64,000 nt of DNA from a virus. Of this stretch, positions 2,825 to 39,062 are shown one piece after another. The DNA lies in IMG/VR virus record IMGVR_UViG_3300044712_002668, positions 271,989 through 335,988 of that record; one strand, given 5' to 3'. Below the pieces are notes generated by a model. It searched no databases and had not been told where the DNA came from. It was given only the letters and a program-made list of their open reading frames with translations. Both the position numbers and the translations under genes were made by a program. The number at the start of each line of letters is the position of its first letter. Position 1 is the first letter of the stretch.

Positions 2825-3212
2825 TACCACAGAGGAAAGGCTTGACGATTATTGTAAGCGTATTGGATTGAAGATGAAGGTTGAATACATCGGACTAATA
2901 TCCGATGGATTGTTTTCCAAGAAGCATTATAAATGCAGGCTTGGTTTCAAGGGTAGGACTTTGACTACCGATTTTTATCAGGGTATGGGTTGCACAGAAG
3001 AACCGGTTATCCCTGATGTGATTTCAAGTTTGTGTTTGGATGCTTCTGCTGGAATGGAAGACTTTCCTTTTTTCTGTTCCAGCTTTGGATATGATACCGA
3101 TTCGATGAAGGCCAATAAGCTTTGGAAGGCATGCAAGGCTACCGTGCCCAAGTTGAAGAGGTTTCTTGGAGATGCATTCAATGAAACCTGTGAGAAGGGT
3201 AGTACTTGGTAA
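2817..3212 (+). CDS. hypothetical protein (131 aa)
   Basis: Begins MTDTTEERLDDYCKRIG inside the end of the previous gene and ends in a TAATG overlap with the next. It contains several Cys residues but no spaced zinc motif. The segment MEDFPFFCSSFGYDTDSMKA resembles small phage proteins that follow a primase- or recombinase-type gene, but I cannot assign a function. Confidence 0.7.
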   Translation: MTDTTEERLDDYCKRIGLKMKVEYIGLISDGLFSKKHYKCRLGFKGRTLTTDFYQGMGCTEEPVIPDVISSLCLDASAGMEDFPFFCSSFGYDTDSMKANKLWKACKATVPKLKRFLGDAFNETCEKGSTW

Positions 3213-3822: not shown

Positions 3823-4376
3823 ACATCAACAACCTCAAGAGTTTTATTACTGGTAAGATTGATTCGATCAAGAATGTTGTATTGAATAAGTTTGGGGTTA
3901 GCGGAGAGCCGTTGTTTGTGGGTGGTAGTTGGGAAGTGTTTGTTGAGAAGATCCATGAAATCGTGGATGATTATGTTGAGAATAGTCACAGACGTTTTTT
4001 GGAATCATTGGTTACCAATGAGGTTGAGTTCAAGATTGGTGAGCTGGATCTTCCAACTGAGAATCGTATTAATGATTTGATTGATGAAGCGATGACTGAG
4101 AAGATTGATGAAGCTATCGATAAGGCTATTTCGGATGAGGGTAATGAACATTTGAGGACAGTTATTACTGAAATTGTTGAGGAGAACGCTGTAACTGAGG
4201 AGTATATTTCTGATATTGTTCGAACACAGTTGAGTGACCAAGGTGATGATTTTGAGGATTCTGTTATGAGTGTAGTCAAGACAAACAGTGATTTTGAGTT
4301 GTGTGTTCTGGATATTATCAAGGATAATCCCAGGGCTGTTCTCAAGGCATTGCTTGAGGGTTTGAATAACGAGTAG
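3819..4376 (+). CDS. acidic helical protein (185 aa)
   Basis: Rich in Asp, Glu, Ile and Val with repeating helical stretches such as LIDEAMTEKIDEAIDKAISD, suggesting coiled-coil assembly. There are no cysteines in a metal pattern and no catalytic motif. Unknown; a structural or adaptor role would fit the composition. Confidence 0.65.
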   Translation: MNINNLKSFITGKIDSIKNVVLNKFGVSGEPLFVGGSWEVFVEKIHEIVDDYVENSHRRFLESLVTNEVEFKIGELDLPTENRINDLIDEAMTEKIDEAIDKAISDEGNEHLRTVITEIVEENAVTEEYISDIVRTQLSDQGDDFEDSVMSVVKTNSDFELCVLDIIKDNPRAVLKALLEGLNNE

Positions 4377-20845: not shown

Positions 20846-23281
20846 ATGAAAGCAAACAAAGAACAGAATTTAAACAAGCATTTGTACTGTGTGATGCTTA
20901 TGGCCATGCATTGTGCTGAATATCTTGGCGTCAATGATACGGCTCTCAAAGAGGTCATCGGGCTTTCTGCTTTCCTTCATGACGTAGGTAAGGCTACCAA
21001 ATATTTTCAAAACATCTCCCTCAGGGAAGAGAAGACCAGCACCAAAAAGTTTTTCGATCTTATTCGTGAACAGTATCCCCAATTTTCCGGAGAGGATGGT
21101 AAGGATTGGTATCCGAGGCATAACGAAATCTCATGGTTGTGGGCGGCTCTACACGCTACCGGTAAGTCTCTGTTCAAGAAGGTTGGCCTCCAAGCTATCT
21201 ATTGGCATCACGGAACCTTTGATATCAACCCTATCCGAGATACTGATACCAAATCCCTTGTAGAAGAATTGACCAAGTTCTCTCCCGATGAATGGAAAAC
21301 CATTGACCAAACAATCAAATCCCTTATTGATAATACAAACTTTCCTTTTGATATTACAAAGTATCTTGATGATAACATTGAACATTGTAAGATGTCACCT
21401 TTGTTTGATATTGAAGATAAGGCTGCCAATAATGGCATGATTGAAAACGCTCAGCGTTGGGTTATTCGTAGTTGTGTGATGTATGCTGATGCTACTGTTT
21501 CAAGGATGTCTTCCGATGAATTGAATGATCTAATTCTCAATAGAAATCCAGCTACTTATTTCAAGCCTTATTATCTCTCTGTGAAGCCTGAGTTTGTTTG
21601 TCCTGAAGGTTACGATCCGGAACGTTTCAGGATTCAGAGTGAGATTTATAAGAGTTGTAATCATACTACGGTTGTAAAGGCTCCTGCTGGTTTCGGTAAG
21701 ACCTTGATTGGTTTGATGTGGGGCCTGCTACATGGACAACAGTTCTATTGGGTTTGCCCTCGTAATGATGTTGCCCAAGGCGTTTTCGAAAACATCAAGG
21801 AAGAACTCCGTAGACTTAACATCAATATCAATGTTGAATTGTTCCTGACATCGGAACGTCAAGACTCATTTGGACCGAATGTACCGCATGTACATGGTAC
21901 GTGTGACATTGTGGTAACGAACATTGATATGTTGATGGCTCCATTGCAGAGTCACAAGCATGCATGCAGGGTTTTTGATATCAATGCTCGTAACATTATC
22001 ATGGATGAGTTCCATGAGTTGATTGGTGATGAAGGAATGTTTTCGGCCTTTATCAATTATATGAGGGCTCGCAATTTGATTTGCTCAAATACGAGAACCT
22101 TGCTCTTGTCAGCTACTCCTTCCGTCCTGAATGAACTTTGGGATAGCGATACAAAGCAAACCAGGCTTCTTCCAGATGATGAACATCATTATAAGGCTCA
22201 GCATGATAAGCCTTATTACTTCAAGTTCGCTACTGCAATGCCCACCAAGCCGTTGCCTGGCTCGTTGAGTATGTATTGCAGCATTTCCACTGTCATTGTA
22301 AATTACAATCCAAGAGTTCATACGGCAATTATTCACAGTCATTATCCAACGAATTACAAGAAGGACATTTTGAATGGAATTTTCAAGACCTTTGGAAAGG
22401 GAGGGGATAAGAATGGGACTGTGATATCAGCGCCTATTCTACAGGCTGCATTTGATATTTCATTCAGGAGTATGTATAAGGCAGTTGAATCTCCTGAGGG
22501 AGACATTCAGCCACTTGGGCGTGTGAATCGTTGGGGAGAGTTGGAGAGTGCAGAGGTTGTGTTGGTACCTTTGGCGGCTTCTAATCCTAGTGAACGGGGA
22601 GCAATCAATACCCGATATGATTTGGACCTGCACCGGGATTGGTTGAAGTATTTGAAGAACAATATAAAGTCAAAGGCTACGTTGGATGAGGTTTATTCTT
22701 TGTATAATGCTTACAATAATGTTGCCAAGCCGAAGTTGATATCTTATTATTACAGGTGTTTGGATAAGGCAACTGAGAGATTGTCAAAGTTCTTCCCCAA
22801 GGACTTCGGAGTTTCCCGGCCTTCTCGTGATAATATCAAATCGGTTTCAAATCTGAGAAGTTATTCTCCATCATTCTTTATTGTAGTAAGGAATTTGAAG
22901 ACCAAGGATTGGCATCCATTTGCTTTCAATATTCAGAACTATGATTTGGATGAGTGCATAAGTGAAAACCGGGAGAAGTTGGAAGCGTATACAATTAAAA
23001 CTGTTATGGAGCATTTGAATGAATTGAAGTTTGAGGATGGCGAATGTCATTTTGATTATAGTAAGATTTTGAATAGGTTCTTCAATCCAAAGAGGAAGAG
23101 TGAGAAGAAGATTGGTGGCAAGCTTGTAAAGATAACTTCCAAGGTTCGTAAGAATTATAAGGCAGAAGATTTTATTGATTATATCAGGGAAACAAAAACG
23201 CCATTGCCGGTGTTTGATAGGTTCTTTGATCCTGTTCGTGGTTTGGTTAAGGAAGAGTTTTTGTACGCAATCAATTATTGA
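20846..23281 (+). CDS. cas3: Cas3 HD nuclease-helicase
   Basis: 811 residues with HD nuclease then SF2 helicase. HD side: early His, FLHDVGKATKYF near residue 41, RHNEISWLWAA, and YWHHGTF. Helicase: Walker A APAGFGKT near 278, motif II MDEFHE near 386 (DEFH instead of DEAH), motif III LLSATPS near 421, motif VI QPLGRVNRWG near 555. Cas3 nicks, unwinds and degrades DNA marked by Cascade. It is not fused to Cas2, unlike type I-F Cas3. First gene of a cas3-cas7-cas5-cas6 operon with 4-base overlaps or short gaps. Transcribed away from the minus-strand peptidase gene. Confidence 0.95.
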   Translation: MKANKEQNLNKHLYCVMLMAMHCAEYLGVNDTALKEVIGLSAFLHDVGKATKYFQNISLREEKTSTKKFFDLIREQYPQFSGEDGKDWYPRHNEISWLWAALHATGKSLFKKVGLQAIYWHHGTFDINPIRDTDTKSLVEELTKFSPDEWKTIDQTIKSLIDNTNFPFDITKYLDDNIEHCKMSPLFDIEDKAANNGMIENAQRWVIRSCVMYADATVSRMSSDELNDLILNRNPATYFKPYYLSVKPEFVCPEGYDPERFRIQSEIYKSCNHTTVVKAPAGFGKTLIGLMWGLLHGQQFYWVCPRNDVAQGVFENIKEELRRLNININVELFLTSERQDSFGPNVPHVHGTCDIVVTNIDMLMAPLQSHKHACRVFDINARNIIMDEFHELIGDEGMFSAFINYMRARNLICSNTRTLLLSATPSVLNELWDSDTKQTRLLPDDEHHYKAQHDKPYYFKFATAMPTKPLPGSLSMYCSISTVIVNYNPRVHTAIIHSHYPTNYKKDILNGIFKTFGKGGDKNGTVISAPILQAAFDISFRSMYKAVESPEGDIQPLGRVNRWGELESAEVVLVPLAASNPSERGAINTRYDLDLHRDWLKYLKNNIKSKATLDEVYSLYNAYNNVAKPKLISYYYRCLDKATERLSKFFPKDFGVSRPSRDNIKSVSNLRSYSPSFFIVVRNLKTKDWHPFAFNIQNYDLDECISENREKLEAYTIKTVMEHLNELKFEDGECHFDYSKILNRFFNPKRKSEKKIGGKLVKITSKVRKNYKAEDFIDYIRETKTPLPVFDRFFDPVRGLVKEEFLYAINY

Positions 23282-23316
23282 AGTTCAATCAACCAACCAA
23301 CAAGGAAAAAAACAGC

Positions 23317-24429
23317 ATGTCAATCGCCAAGTCTCTGCTTCTTCGTGTCCTTTTCAATGGTGATGGAATCGTCAATTTTGATTCTCCGGATCAAAAGTAT
23401 CTTTGGAACAAGTTGGAGGGGGCAGGTTTTATCAGGCACAATAATACCATGGTTGGAAAGGCCAGGTATGAGTCAAAAAAGGTAACTCGTCAGAATCAGG
23501 ATAAAGAGGATTATGAGAAGGAGGTTTATACACGGGTTCCAATCAATTCTGCAGACTGCATTCGTCATACCATGTATGAAGATGTGATGCGAACGCATCT
23601 TCCCAATGTTCAGCATGATGATGATTGGTTGATTCGTACCATTGCAAACCCTGCTTTCATCCAGCGTGGGTATATGTTCCCCCGTGCCAACAAGGAATCT
23701 TGGAAGCGCAAGTCTTCATTGGCTTTCGGTTATGCCAAGGGTATTACGCCAAGTGTTCCGGCAATTGAAACGTTTTCAAATTCTCAAGAAAGGGATAATG
23801 TTGAGAAGAGCGAGAGTGGTTCTGAGACATCTTTCTTCTCTCGTGAGGTTCGAGGACAAGTAAATTATGAAATGACTGGAGTAATTGATTTGGCTGAGCT
23901 TGGGTTTATCTCCTTGAGTGATGTTCATGATCGTTTGGGATTCCATCCCGATCTTGATGGTGAGTTTATTGAGATGTTCAAGAAGCATTTCAAGTTTGAG
24001 GATACGATTACTTCTGGGTATTTTGTTCGTGAAGGTGATGCTTATGAGATTCCTGAGCAGGGTATTCTGCTTGGGGACAAGTATGTTATCGCCATGGTTG
24101 AGGATATCCTGAAGCGTTTGGCCAGGTTCAATTTGGTTCGTACCACTACTGGTTTTCTTCAGACTGCCAAGGTTGAGGTTATGGTTGTCAAGGATCCTTT
24201 GACTGACCGTGTTACCAATACTGATGGTTGGATTAATGTTTTTGATAATGGTAAGTTTTCTGTTGACTTTTTGAAGGGTCTCAAGATTGAGCGTGTTTAT
24301 AATGAGACCTCTATTGAGGAGGCTATTGAGAAGGTTCGGCATTATAAGGAACTGAAGAATGTTGATGAGCCGGTTGTGGAAGCCAAGCCCCCGAAGAAGC
24401 CGCGTGGCAAGAAAGAGGCGGCGGCATGA
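23317..24429 (+). CDS. cas7: Cas7-like Cascade backbone protein
   Basis: Start at ATG 23317 (MSIAKSLLLRVLFNG), preceded by CAAGGAAAAAAACAGCATG; the upstream in-frame ATG has no such site. 370 residues. The region RGYMFPRANKESWKRKSSLA, followed by AIETFSNS, TSFFSREVRGQVNYEMTGVI and DLAELGFISL, recalls Cas7 of the I-F2 (I-Fv) variant rather than Cas7e. It would coat the crRNA spacer as a helical filament. The C-terminus is a Lys/Pro/Ala tail (KPPKKPRGKKEAAA), unusual for Cas7 but like other basic tails here. Subtype assignment is from pattern memory. Confidence 0.7.
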   Translation: MSIAKSLLLRVLFNGDGIVNFDSPDQKYLWNKLEGAGFIRHNNTMVGKARYESKKVTRQNQDKEDYEKEVYTRVPINSADCIRHTMYEDVMRTHLPNVQHDDDWLIRTIANPAFIQRGYMFPRANKESWKRKSSLAFGYAKGITPSVPAIETFSNSQERDNVEKSESGSETSFFSREVRGQVNYEMTGVIDLAELGFISLSDVHDRLGFHPDLDGEFIEMFKKHFKFEDTITSGYFVREGDAYEIPEQGILLGDKYVIAMVEDILKRLARFNLVRTTTGFLQTAKVEVMVVKDPLTDRVTNTDGWINVFDNGKFSVDFLKGLKIERVYNETSIEEAIEKVRHYKELKNVDEPVVEAKPPKKPRGKKEAAA

Positions 24430-25328
24430 GCAAGTATATTCTGCTTCTGGATTTTCAAAACGCAGGAATCTTTAAAAAGTATTGGCATAAAACAGAGCCT
24501 CGCTCTGCTTCCGGTGATGACCGTATTTTTGATGGAAAGAATTCCGATTATCGTCGTAAGGATCAATGGATTGAACCTTCTACGGTAACCTTTCATTATA
24601 GTTTTATTGAGAATGTTTTGAGAGTTCTTGCCGGGCGTAGACCCGTTCCTAAGTATCGCTCATCCTGTGTTGAACATGATGATGATATAATCAGGTTGGC
24701 TAAAAATAGTTATGTAAAAATTGATGCATTGGTCAGGCATTGGGAGGGGAAGCCTGACACATTTGCCACAGAGACCATGACAGTCAGGAAGGCGTCATGG
24801 AATGCATGGAATCAGGGTTGTATAGTTGGTTGGAAAAGGTTGGAGAATTTGTTGCCTGAGGATTTGTTCAATGAATTCTGTAGATTGGTTGAGAATATTT
24901 TTGGAATTGATTATTATAGAAAGGTTACGTTGAGTAAGGTTATTGAGAAGATTCATACGATGAAGAATGATAAGAGGATCATATCATTGTGTGACAGGGC
25001 GGTAGCCGTTTCGTGTACAAATTTCAAGCATCTATTGTTGGAAACTGGGCAGCCAACATTTTTTCAAGCCAGTTATAAGAAGTATGGGGATTCAACGGAA
25101 GCGAATGTTTGTATGAGAACCTTGACTGTGAAGGGAATTGCTGATGTAAGCAGATTGGATGGTATGATTGGAGTACCTGTAACGGCTGAAGAGTTGGAGA
25201 TGTTCCGCAAGGGTCGTGGATTTGCCACATTGTTTGATGGGGGTTTGGTAACTATAAACAAGGTTGTAGATTTGGAGTATTCAAACACTGGTGTAGTTTT
25301 GAATGGGTATACGCAAGCACTACAATGA
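24426..25328 (+). CDS. cas5: Cas5-like Cascade subunit with internal insertion
   Basis: 300 residues, between cas7 and cas6 with ATGA overlaps. It opens with a strand (SKYILLLDFQNAGIFKKYW) as in Cas5, and has SFIENVLRVLAGRRPVPKYR, a helical middle (residues ~120-190), and a C-terminal strand-helix part. This order resembles Cas5 of I-F2, whose inserted helical domain reads the PAM in place of Cas8. No cas8 or cas11 is present, so this protein probably caps the crRNA 5' handle and senses the PAM (inference). Assignment rests on position plus layout. Confidence 0.6.
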   Translation: MSKYILLLDFQNAGIFKKYWHKTEPRSASGDDRIFDGKNSDYRRKDQWIEPSTVTFHYSFIENVLRVLAGRRPVPKYRSSCVEHDDDIIRLAKNSYVKIDALVRHWEGKPDTFATETMTVRKASWNAWNQGCIVGWKRLENLLPEDLFNEFCRLVENIFGIDYYRKVTLSKVIEKIHTMKNDKRIISLCDRAVAVSCTNFKHLLLETGQPTFFQASYKKYGDSTEANVCMRTLTVKGIADVSRLDGMIGVPVTAEELEMFRKGRGFATLFDGGLVTINKVVDLEYSNTGVVLNGYTQALQ

Positions 25329-25846
25329 ACCTGTATAAAATCCACAAGGCATTTGCGAATCCTTATCAGAACCACCAGGCATTGAAGAACTTGTTTCTGG
25401 GAGAGGGGCGGGTTCTTTTCCAGAACTTGGGTTCTTCTTTATTGGTGCTTTCTCAAATAAAGTTGAGCGATGAATACCGGAATAACTTTTTGATTGATTT
25501 TCTTGATATTGATAATTGTTTGAATGGTGACATTATGAATTTTTCTATCAGGTTGAATGCTTGCAAGGGCAGTCAGGGCAAGCGATATACGTTGAAGGAG
25601 GATGAATTTGAGAGGTGGGTTGATTGGAAGATGGGACAAGCTGGAGTTTCATTGGTTAAGAAGAGCATTCATAATGAGGGAGTTATTGTTAGTGACAGGC
25701 AGGGTGGGCATTGTTATCATGCTTCATTGTTTGTATCTGGTATATTGAAGGTTGAGGATAGGGTTTTGTTCAGCAAATCGGTTGAGCTTGGCATTGGACA
25801 TGGCAAAGCTTTCGGGTTCGGGTTGTTGAATGTGTTTACGTGTTAG
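25325..25846 (+). CDS. cas6: Cas6 crRNA endonuclease, Cas6e-like
   Basis: 173 residues. Features of CasE/Cas6e are visible: YQNHQALKNLFLGEGRVLFQ near the start (compare YQLHQGLWHLF), a middle FSIRLNACKGSQGKRYTL, WVDWKMGQAGVSL, and the Gly-rich loop GIGHGKAFGFGLL near the end. His18 in NHQ is the likely catalytic His by analogy. It should cut the 3' side of each repeat hairpin, leaving an 8-base handle AUUGAAAY. The stop is only a few bases before the first repeat, so gene and array share one transcript. Confidence 0.85.
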   Translation: MNLYKIHKAFANPYQNHQALKNLFLGEGRVLFQNLGSSLLVLSQIKLSDEYRNNFLIDFLDIDNCLNGDIMNFSIRLNACKGSQGKRYTLKEDEFERWVDWKMGQAGVSLVKKSIHNEGVIVSDRQGGHCYHASLFVSGILKVEDRVLFSKSVELGIGHGKAFGFGLLNVFTC

Positions 25847-37344: not shown

Positions 37345-38076
37345 ATGAAGCTCAATCAAGTTCTGGCAATTGAAGAGTCCGTAAAGAAGCAACCTTTGGC
37401 GGATCTGACTCAGGCTTACCACATTGCGCAGAAGCCGGATCTTTTTACTGGTTTCAATCGTACATGGCATCCTCGTTTTGAGGATGGAGTAAAGTATCCT
37501 GAAGAGAGTAAGATTGTTCAACAGAATACTCTTGAGTTGATCAAGAGTGTTACTGCTCAAATGAGCGAGATGTTTAACATTGTTGCTACAAAGGATATTG
37601 CCAATTGTTCGGCCAAGGCTGATATCATTGTGGATGAGGTGGTGCTGGTGGCAGCGGTGCCGGTTACCTACCTGATTTTCCTTGAGAAGAAGCTGGTTGA
37701 TCTGCGGACTTTCGTTTCCAAGCTTCCTGTACTTGACCCGAGCAAGAAGTGGAGCTATAACGCTCAGGACGGGCTGTATAGGTCTGAGCCTGAGGAACGG
37801 CTCAAGACAAAGAAGACAGTTCGTCCTATTGTGAAATATGATGCTACTAAAGAGCATCCTGCACAAACAGAGTTGATTTCAGAAGATATTGTAGAGGGGA
37901 GCTGGAAGGAGACTCATCTTTCCGGTGCATTGGCAAGAGATACTGTCAAGTTCATGTTGGATAAGATTTCCAAGTTGGAGCAAGCTGTAAAGGTTGCTCG
38001 TGAGAAGGCCAATTCGATTGATGTAGAGAGATCGAAGATTGGTGAAGTGGTTTTGAACTACCTCTTTTCGGTATAA
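37345..38076 (+). CDS. DUF7873-type protein
   Basis: Start at ATG 37345 after TTAAGGAAAGTAAAA. 243 residues following a pattern I know from phage and actinobacterial proteins annotated as a domain of unknown function: MKLNQVLAIEESVK, LTQAYHIAQKPDLFTGFNRT, NCSAKADIIVD, VPVTYLIFLEKKLVDLRTFV, KLPVLDPS, LSGALARDTVKFMLDKISKL and the end LNYLF. Length is full. The reaction, if any, is unknown. Confidence 0.8.
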   Translation: MKLNQVLAIEESVKKQPLADLTQAYHIAQKPDLFTGFNRTWHPRFEDGVKYPEESKIVQQNTLELIKSVTAQMSEMFNIVATKDIANCSAKADIIVDEVVLVAAVPVTYLIFLEKKLVDLRTFVSKLPVLDPSKKWSYNAQDGLYRSEPEERLKTKKTVRPIVKYDATKEHPAQTELISEDIVEGSWKETHLSGALARDTVKFMLDKISKLEQAVKVAREKANSIDVERSKIGEVVLNYLFSV

Positions 38077-38083
38077 GGCGAAT

Positions 38084-38344
38084 ATGATTCCGTTGAATGG
38101 ATATGTTCTAGTACGTACTACTGCCACTGATACCAAGTCAAGTGGTGGTTTGTATATCCCTCCATCTGAAAATAACAGTGAAGGGATCGTAGAAAGAATT
38201 GCAGAAGGTATGGAAGTACCTTTTGAGGTTGGAGATACAGTGTTCTTCAAGCCTGCTGCCGGTCTGGTTTTCACCAAAGAAAATGTGAAATACAGAGTGG
38301 TGAAGTTTGAGGATGACATTGTAGGGATGATCAAGAAATCTTGA
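38084..38344 (+). CDS. groES: GroES-type co-chaperonin
   Basis: 86 residues with Cpn10 features: MIPLNGYVLVRTTATDTKSS, GGLYIPPS just after the mobile-loop region, EGIVERIAEGMEVPFEVGD, and the end KYRVVKFEDDIVGMI. It would cap a GroEL ring; no groEL is in the window, so it may pair with host GroEL, as T4 gp31 does. The mobile loop (TDTKSSGGLYIP) is short. Lies directly upstream of the RNA region. Confidence 0.88.
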   Translation: MIPLNGYVLVRTTATDTKSSGGLYIPPSENNSEGIVERIAEGMEVPFEVGDTVFFKPAAGLVFTKENVKYRVVKFEDDIVGMIKKS

Positions 38345-38400: not shown

Positions 38401-38445
38401 CTAATGGCAGACAATCTTAAGTTTAAGTTGAAAACTGAAGTTCAA

Positions 38446-38500
38446 ATCGAAAGCCGTTGATGGTAACATCGTGAAGGTTCGAATCCTTCCCTCCCCACCA
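38446..38500 (+). tRNA. 3' half of permuted class II tRNA, unit 1 (possibly Ser-CGA)
   Basis: Contains TCGAAA (anticodon-loop like), stem strand CCGTT (38454-38458), a long variable arm GATG/CATC, a T arm GAAGG-TTCGAAT-CCTTC (38473-38489), acceptor strand CCTCCCC (38490-38496), A73 and an encoded CCA. No matching 5' half exists upstream. GGGGAGG at 38727 pairs 7/7 with the acceptor, and AACGG at 38754-38758 pairs 5/5 with the stem. If the loop is A-TCGAAA the anticodon is CGA (Ser), fitting a class II arm; the exact junction is uncertain. Confidence 0.7.
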
Positions 38501-38726
38501 TCCACAGCACAGGTAGTCCTTTGAAACGTATACTCCAAGGTATTCATTCTACCTAGAAAGAATGATTCTGGTTGTCTTGTGTTCCTGCTTTCCCGTTCTC
38601 TCTCATCCATCCTCCAAGTTTGTTGGTGAGTATATAAAGTAAGAGTGCGATGGTTCAAGTCCATCGGCTGTGTCTGAAGCTGACTTATCAAAATCCTGGT
38701 AATTTTGGAGTTAGCTTCGCCTACCT
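38501..38726 (+). other. intervening sequence of unit 1 with orphan T-arm element
   Basis: Between the halves of unit 1. AGGTAG (38511-38516) can pair with CTACCT (38721-38726), extending the acceptor helix. Inside is a perfect T arm, GATGG-TTCAAGT-CCATC (38649-38665), followed by GGCTGTG, whose complement CACAGC occurs at 38503-38508; the two pairings are mutually exclusive unless a pseudoknot forms. TATACTC/GAGTATA also pair (38529, 38628). Another hairpin, GAAGCTGAC/GTTAGCTTC, lies at 38675-38718. It may hide a third, unusual tRNA or tRNA-like RNA. Confidence 0.5.
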
Positions 38727-38760
38727 GGGGAGGTAGCCGAATTGGCACAGGCAAACGGTA
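38727..38760 (+). tRNA. 5' half of permuted tRNA, unit 1
   Basis: GGGGAGG acceptor strand, TA, D arm GCC-GAATTGGCACA-GGC with the conserved A14, GG and A21-type positions, then AACGG anticodon-stem strand. The downstream T arm at 38843 does not fit it: the acceptor would have one mismatch and two G.U pairs and the anticodon stem fails. It fits the upstream half at 38446 perfectly. Confidence 0.7.
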
Positions 38761-38820
38761 ATTAGAGAATCAAGCTATTCTGCCAAGTTCTTAAAGAATA
38801 ACGTTTTATCCTAATCAAGG

Positions 38821-38867
38821 TGTTGTGACAAATTGCCGAGGTATTGGTTCAATTCCAATCCCCTTCT
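38821..38867 (+). tRNA. 3' half of permuted tRNA, unit 2
   Basis: Stem strand TTGCC (38833-38837), a five-base variable loop, T arm ATTGG-TTCAATT-CCAAT (38843-38859), acceptor CCCCTTC (38860-38866) and T73; no CCA is encoded. The partner 5' strand GAAGGGG lies downstream at 38985. TGTTGTGA (38821-38828), just before the anticodon-loop part, can pair with TCATAACA at 39027-39034 downstream of the 5' half. Confidence 0.7.
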
Positions 38868-38984
38868 CTAAGAGCTTTAGTGATTCCGTATAGCGTTGTA
38901 CCATAGAACTCTAACGCCCCCATCATCCCTCAGAAACAACGCAGAGTTTTTTGGTATGGAGTTATTCTTATTAAAGCTCTTAGT
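38868..38984 (+). other. intervening sequence of unit 2
   Basis: CTAAGAGCTTTA (38868-38879) and TAAAGCTCTTAG (38972-38983) are perfect 12-base complements. They directly continue the acceptor stem CCCCTTC/GAAGGGG with a T-T mismatch between, so the transcript would form one long rod closing the acceptor end. This is what a permuted pre-tRNA needs before end processing. Confidence 0.7.
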
Positions 38985-39020
38985 GAAGGGGTAGCCTAAT
39001 CGTAGGGCGCGGTAAATAAA
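38985..39020 (+). tRNA. 5' half of permuted tRNA, unit 2
   Basis: GAAGGGG acceptor strand, TA, D arm GCC-TAATCGTAG-GGC, then CGGTAA. GGTAA pairs with TTGCC of the upstream 3' half (one G.U). The D loop has CG where GG is usual. No T arm follows downstream before the terminator and next gene, so a conventional tRNA is excluded. The anticodon cannot be set because the join lies in the loop. Confidence 0.65.
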
Positions 39021-39062
39021 GCCTAATCATAACATTAAACGTCGTGGGATAAATAGACGTAT

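What the first reader, a model, noticed from the sequence alone, without database searches (positions are those of the whole stretch)
38446..39034. Two permuted tRNA genes in tandem (3' half upstream of 5' half)
The T arm plus acceptor CCTCCCC-A-CCA at 38473-38500 has no conventional 5' partner upstream, but GGGGAGG with a D arm 230 bases downstream (38727) pairs 7/7, and the anticodon stems AACGG/CCGTT pair 5/5. The same holds for CCCCTTC (38860) and GAAGGGG (38985), 7/7, with GGTAA/TTGCC. In unit 2 the spacer arms CTAAGAGCTTTA/TAAAGCTCTTAG continue the acceptor helix for 12 pairs, and TGTTGTGA/TCATAACA closes the anticodon side. Circularly permuted tRNA genes are known from some algae and archaea; I know of none in phages.
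Basis: partly seen in the sequence, partly recalled or inferred. Interest (0 to 1): 0.93.

Follow-up and report, generated by a model that had tools for sequence, protein, structure and literature searches.

The report
Twin permuted tRNA-like RNAs in phages
Next to one gene of unknown function, many unrelated bacterial viruses encode a pair of RNAs shaped like transfer RNAs but written back to front and lacking an anticodon, so they probably imitate tRNA rather than decode; the RNA family catalogue searched here (Rfam 15) does not hold them.

Summary
Window 38405-39054 holds two tandem tRNA-like units in 3'-half-then-5'-half order, downstream of a DUF7873 gene (37345-38076) and a GroES-like gene. 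Of 96 DUF7873 loci examined, 89 carry at least one such unit and 60 carry two, about 250 times the control rate. They occur in cultured Gordonia, Arthrobacter, Rhodococcus, Klebsiella, Rhizobium, Vibrio and Pseudanabaena phages, unannotated.

Acceptor, T, D and anticodon-like stems are kept despite near-total sequence turnover. Both basal helices of unit 2, and one of unit 1, covary although the finder did not impose them.

They are probably not tRNA genes spliced into decoding tRNAs: no anticodon loop, no U33 enrichment, window unit 2 seals its acceptor inside a longer helix, and the contig shows no RNA ligase or tRNA-splicing endonuclease.

Best reading: a new phage RNA family of two tRNA mimics on basal stems, working like bacterial Y RNAs, with DUF7873 as likely partner. 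It fails membership tests of YrlA, tmRNA and algal/archaeal permuted tRNAs. Structure, conservation and linkage are shown; function and partnership are inferred, and no expression data were available.

The parts
37345..38076 (+). DUF7873 (PF25283) protein gene, likely partner
   Evidence: Pfam E 7e-92; upstream of the RNA pair in 89 of 96 loci
38084..38344 (+). GroES-like gene between DUF7873 and the RNAs; absent from that place in the relatives read
   Evidence: ORF; identification from its sequence by own knowledge, no family search run
38406..38412 (+). unit 1 basal helix, 5' strand TGGCAGA
   Evidence: pairs 7/7 with 38779-38785; covaries in relatives
38413..38436 (+). leader with period-6 ARRYTN repeats
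   Evidence: A at position 1 in 92%, T at position 5 in 87% of repeats
38453..38458 (+). unit 1 anticodon-like stem, 3' strand GCCGTT
   Evidence: pairs with 38754-38759
38459..38472 (+). unit 1 long variable region GATGGTAACATCGT
   Evidence: sequence
38473..38500 (+). unit 1 T arm, acceptor 3' strand, discriminator A and CCA
38501..38726 (+). unit 1 acceptor loop, 226 nt (6-88 nt in relatives), holding a further T arm at 38649-38665
38727..38759 (+). unit 1 acceptor 5' strand, D arm, anticodon-like stem 5' strand
   Evidence: 7/7 acceptor, GG in D loop
38766..38795 (+). between the units: basal helix 3' strand TCTGCCA 38779-38785 and conserved motif region (AGAYTATYGCTCYAA in relatives)
38805..38813 (+). 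unit 2 helix P1, 5' strand TTTATCCTA
38820..38828 (+). unit 2 helix P2, 5' strand GTGTTGTGA, after AATCAAGG (AATCGACC in relatives)
38833..38867 (+). unit 2 anticodon-like stem 3' strand, variable loop, T arm, acceptor 3' strand, discriminator T
38868..38983 (+). unit 2 acceptor extension: 12-bp helix and structured loop
   Evidence: comparable extensions in L196 and L199
38985..39015 (+). unit 2 acceptor 5' strand, D arm, anticodon-like stem 5' strand
39027..39041 (+). unit 2 helix P2 3' strand TCATAACAT and conserved TTAAACG
39045..39053 (+). unit 2 helix P1 3' strand TGGGATAAA
39063..39104 (+). strong hairpin GGGCCAGGT...ACCTGGCCC, possible transcript end
   Evidence: sequence; the terminator scan did not call it

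Best explanation
The locus encodes two tandem structured non-coding RNA units. In each, a tRNA-like domain (T arm, 7-bp acceptor hairpin, D arm, in that 5'-to-3' order) sits on an anticodon-like stem that has no anticodon loop and instead continues into basal helices with conserved internal-loop motifs. Shown: structure, permuted order, conservation, tight linkage to DUF7873. Inferred: the RNAs are made together with DUF7873 and form a ribonucleoprotein with it, the protein holding the basal stems or the 6-nt ARRYTN repeats and leaving the tRNA-like elbow free to bind or occupy tRNA-handling factors of the host (for example PNPase, RNase P, tRNA-modifying or tRNA-attacking enzymes). That is how bacterial Y RNAs (YrlA with Rsr) are described, and there too two Y RNA genes lie beside the protein gene. 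It works like a Y RNA but is not a member of that family.
For: 89/96 DUF7873 loci carry permuted units, 250 times control. Started from the RNA side, all 7 testable loci with permuted units have DUF7873. Not imposed by the finder: D-loop GG 55/55 and 52/55; anticodon-like stems; P1 and P2 of unit 2; basal helix of unit 1. RNAalifold: 19 of 21 pairs with compensatory changes. No U33. RNA-level, not coding, constraint on the repeats. A model from 11 loci finds most of 75 others. Weak YrlA hits reflect the shared T-acceptor-D order. YrlA biology: PMC8394870, PMC7790460.
Against: No expression, binding or target data. DUF7873 has no recognisable RNA-binding fold. CCA is encoded next to the acceptor in 25/55 (unit 1) and 21/55 (unit 2), more than a pure mimic would need. 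The unit 2 model scores the window only E=0.16.
Confidence: 0.55

Rival explanations
1. Two-piece, chargeable tRNA-like RNAs: RNase P and 3'-end processing open the short acceptor loop, exposing CCA and leaving nicked tRNA-like domains held by base pairing, as in permuted tmRNA. They could be aminoacylated and used in ribosome rescue, or sequester synthetases or EF-Tu.
For: Many units have a 7-nt acceptor loop such as ACCACAT or TCCACGT; discriminator is A in 40/55 (unit 1) and T in 37/55 (unit 2), CCA in 25/55 and 21/55. Permuted tmRNA matures to two pieces held by base pairing (PMC11915505).
Against: Unit 2 in the window, L196 and L199 seals the acceptor in a 19-22 bp helix. Many units encode no CCA. 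No conserved tag reading frame: the repeats are constrained as RNA.
Confidence: 0.2
2. Decoys: the RNAs are sacrificial or inhibitory tRNA look-alikes that protect the phage's tRNAs from host nucleases that attack tRNA. A more specific form of the mimic model, with or without DUF7873.
For: The DUF7873 genes of several phages lie within tRNA arrays; tRNA elbow conserved while both functional ends are not. A decoy role has been proposed for YrlA against an anticodon nuclease (PMC7790460).
Against: No anticodon arm for an anticodon nuclease to attack; conserved basal motifs and a dedicated gene are not needed for a decoy; nothing tested.
Confidence: 0.13
3. Permuted tRNA genes in the algal or archaeal sense: the precursor is cut at the anticodon side, circularised, and trimmed to a decoding tRNA.
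For: Near-canonical acceptor, T and D arms, CCA in some; anticodon-like stems pair.
Against: No U33 or 7-nt loop; helix often extended; no bulge-helix-bulge at the window junctions by inspection; no splicing endonuclease or RNA ligase on the contig; sealed acceptors.
Confidence: 0.05
4. Decayed tRNA-array debris: remnants of tRNA genes rearranged by recombination, without function.
For: tRNA arrays recombine; the window's unit 1 has a large insertion.
Against: Compensatory changes in nearly all helices, conserved motifs and linkage to DUF7873 over wide divergence.
Confidence: 0.02

Closest known systems
YrlA bacterial Y RNA (Rfam RF02553) with Rsr/Ro60
   Same: T-acceptor-D order, tRNA elbow, basal stem with conserved internal loop instead of an anticodon arm, RNA genes beside one protein gene.
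   Different: Below the Rfam cut-off (best 42.5 bits against 69); basal motifs differ (AATCGACC/TTAAACG); no TROVE protein on the contig; partner gene is DUF7873.
Permuted (two-piece) tmRNA (RF04321 and related)
   Same: Permuted gene order; tRNA-like domain with CCA beside a short acceptor loop.
   Different: Full D stem; no tag reading frame; two tRNA-like units; only weak partial tmRNA-model matches.
Circularly permuted tRNA genes of algae and Thermofilum
   Same: 3' half encoded upstream of the 5' half with a spacer between the acceptor strands.
   Different: Those carry a bulge-helix-bulge junction and a real anticodon and are spliced to functional tRNA (PMC3978253); these show neither.
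ACGCG...TTTCATC...TTTTCGT element family of the same phage's tRNA array (found here)
   Same: Permuted tRNA-like domains on a two-helix basal stem, in phages.
   Different: Different basal motifs; often a complete anticodon arm; many copies directly after tRNA genes.

Membership tests
YrlA Y RNA | matches RF02553 at its gathering score (69 bits) | tested here: not met
   No YrlA match in the window region; DUF7873 relatives up to 37.9 bits; array element 33.1
YrlA Y RNA | tRNA-like T, acceptor and D arms in permuted order on a basal stem | tested here: met
YrlA Y RNA | Rsr/Ro60 (TROVE) partner encoded nearby | tested here: not met
   No PF05731 on the 336-kb contig, control rings in Deinobacterium; contig may be incomplete
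tmRNA (permuted) | match to the tmRNA models | tested here: not met
   None in the window; partial sub-threshold matches in relatives
tmRNA (permuted) | tag reading frame with conserved stop | tested here: not met
   Repeats constrained as RNA: AGR 49, CGN 1, against 74 and 715 in the DUF7873 genes; stops not conserved
tmRNA (permuted) | two-piece mature RNA with charged CCA end | not testable with these tools
   needs RNA from infected cells
Circularly permuted tRNA gene | 3' half before 5' half, acceptor and anticodon stems complementary | tested here: met
Circularly permuted tRNA gene | anticodon loop with U33 after joining | tested here: not met
   T33 in 8/26 or 4/26 (unit 1) and 9/31 or 6/31 (unit 2)
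Circularly permuted tRNA gene | bulge-helix-bulge motif at the junction | tested here: inconclusive
   Not seen at the window junctions by inspection of the fold; not searched systematically in relatives
Circularly permuted tRNA gene | splicing endonuclease and ligase available | tested here: inconclusive
   None on the contig; host enzymes unknown

The most novel reading that the evidence does not exclude
A new class of phage ribonucleoprotein: a DUF7873 assembly that binds the 6-nt repeats and basal stems of a double tRNA-mimic RNA and redirects or blocks a central host tRNA-binding machine, present in phages of several bacterial phyla and unrelated by sequence to Ro60/Y RNA.
Probability: 0.45. 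Interest if true: 0.93.

Novelty: categorically new. Interest (0 to 1): 0.88.

Why it matters
A tRNA-shaped, back-to-front RNA pair with its own linked protein gene, kept across phages of actinobacteria, proteobacteria and cyanobacteria, must do something these phages need. It lies in cultured phages (Phendrix, Racecar, NiceHouse, vB_KpM_Centimanus), so it can be tested now. If the mimic model holds, phages have a Y RNA-like system with their own partner protein, which bears on why so many carry tRNA arrays. It also shows that tRNA finders and Rfam miss or misname such loci: ARAGORN calls a 'tRNA-Stop' inside it in Centimanus.

Tried and rejected
Coding or tmRNA-tag reading of the (K/R)L repeats: rejected by Arg codon use. 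Spliced decoding tRNA: no U33. Group I intron or known ribozyme: nothing at gathering in Rfam, and nothing in lax searches of the window region and ten relatives. Conventional intron-containing tRNA (GGGGAGG 38727 with CCCCTTC 38860): ARAGORN's intron mode offers it with an acceptor mismatch, but relatives keep 7/7 in permuted order. YrlA membership: sub-threshold. DUF7873 as a Cas7-like repeat binder: Foldseek E 0.04 with TM-scores near 0.1, not used. GroES-based search for relatives found nothing; exact T-arm search nothing; a short frame pattern gave mostly chance-like hits. Caveats: the finder requires 7/7 acceptor pairing and a D stem, so those pairs are not independent evidence; D-loop GG, anticodon-like stems, basal helices and the RNA-first test are. 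The unit 2 model does not score the window well and its E-values are rough. Paper searches covered open-licence PubMed Central only; Wolin-lab YrlA papers were not held.

Full report
Observation. ARAGORN and Rfam see nothing at their cut-offs. The window is the right end (271989-335988) of a 336-kb virus record with about 38 ordinary tRNAs at 184-215 kb.

Relatives. DUF7873, one gene upstream, led to L166, an IMG/VR contig with the same two permuted units directly after DUF7873. The same pair, unannotated, follows DUF7873 in Arthrobacter phages Racecar and Mimi, Gordonia phages Phendrix and Keelan, Rhodococcus phage NiceHouse, Klebsiella phage vB_KpM_Centimanus, both Pseudanabaena phages and a Spirochaetales MAG contig; Gordonia phage Ziko, two Rhizobium phages and a Vibrio phage gave one unit with the finder; a Microcoleus phage gave none. 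In 96 DUF7873 loci the finder gave 149 hits, 1.77 per kb, against 0.007 per kb upstream or shuffled; 89 loci have one or more, 60 have two. Started from the RNA side, the motif AGAYTATYGCTCYARRYTYAG gave 13 loci: 8 have permuted units, 7 of these have DUF7873 upstream and the eighth has only 350 nt of sequence upstream of the motif; the 5 without units lack DUF7873 too.

Structure. Acceptor and D stems are conditions of the finder. Independent of it: GG in the D loop in 55/55 and 52/55; anticodon-like stems of at least 5 bp in 38/55 and 39/55, against 26% and 33% with mismatched partners; a 9-bp helix of unit 2 found by mutual information and by RNAalifold, where 19 of 21 pairs (helix, T stem, acceptor) show compensatory change; P1 and P2 of unit 2 with own-partner means of 6.3 and 6.5 bp against 4.5 and 4.0; a basal helix of unit 1, 28/55 with at least 5 bp against 21%, TGGCAGA/TCTGCCA in the window. 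A model of unit 2 from 11 loci finds most of 75 others. The window scores only E=0.16, which I attribute to its 118-nt acceptor loop; the relatives L199 (identical acceptors) and L196 score 4e-12 and 7e-10.

What it is not. There is no anticodon loop: position 33 is T at background frequency whichever side supplies it. In L199 and L196 unit 2's acceptor continues as a 21-22 bp helix, and in the window as 7+12 bp around a T-T mismatch. The leader repeats ARRYTN look like (K/R)L codons but avoid CGN almost completely (AGR 49, CGN 1), while the DUF7873 genes of the same loci prefer CGN (715 to 74), so the constraint is on RNA. No TROVE, RtcB, RNA ligase, T4 RNA ligase 1 or tRNA intron endonuclease was found on the contig.

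How it may work. The architecture, a tRNA-like T-acceptor-D domain on a basal stem with conserved internal loops, and two such RNAs beside a protein gene, is that of YrlA Y RNAs and Rsr, where the basal stem holds the protein and the tRNA-like part meets PNPase. By analogy DUF7873 would hold these RNAs. It folds confidently (pLDDT 92) but matches no solved structure, so binding is inference.

A second family. The same phage's tRNA array holds 11-12 elements of the form P1-ACGCG...TTTCATC...TTTTCGT-P1', often a few bases after a tRNA gene; at least five carry permuted tRNA-like domains by pairing, some with a complete anticodon arm. Two other huge-phage contigs hold more: 30 in all, of which 11 pass the permuted finder. 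I regard it as related in kind but distinct in motif. Here splicing is less easily excluded: in at least four elements the anticodon stem is perfect only if the 5' part supplies positions 27-28/29 and the 3' part the rest (inspection).

Status. Shown: structure, conservation, linkage, absence from Rfam 15. Inferred: partnership with DUF7873, tRNA mimicry as function. Open: expression, processing, target.

Noticed in passing
G000:C1 184347, 184503, 184826 (+) and 202345, 212733, 213032, 213243, 213423, 214104, 214344, 214542, 214781 (-); L050, L158, L161, L162, L164: A second phage RNA family in tRNA arrays: P1-ACGCG-P2-TTTCATC-insert-P2'-TTTTCGT-P1'. Inserts are permuted tRNA-like domains, lone anticodon arms, or tRNA bodies without acceptor. 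30 elements in three phages, P1 5-9 bp with changing sequence.
   Followed up: partly
window 38503-38676: A third T arm (GATGG-TTCAAGT-CCATC) with GGCTGTG lies inside unit 1's acceptor loop; CACAGC at 38503 could pair with it in conventional order (6/7), perhaps an inserted, degenerate tRNA.
   Followed up: partly
window 20846-25846: Phage-encoded type I CRISPR-Cas genes: Cas3-like HD helicase and a Cas7 (DevR/Csa2) homologue.
   Followed up: no
window 38084-38344: A GroES-like gene has been inserted between DUF7873 and its RNA pair, unlike in the relatives read.
   Followed up: no
L182 about 4120-4155, L183 about 4187-4225, L184 about 4222-4260, L193 about 3185-3212: Downstream of unit 2 several phages have a strong hairpin with a similar GGATAY-type loop (CGGATATG, AGGATACG), perhaps a shared 3' element.
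   Followed up: no
L189 3007-3090 (Klebsiella phage vB_KpM_Centimanus): Annotated as tRNA-Stop(tta) by ARAGORN; it overlaps permuted unit 2 and is probably a misannotation.
   Followed up: no
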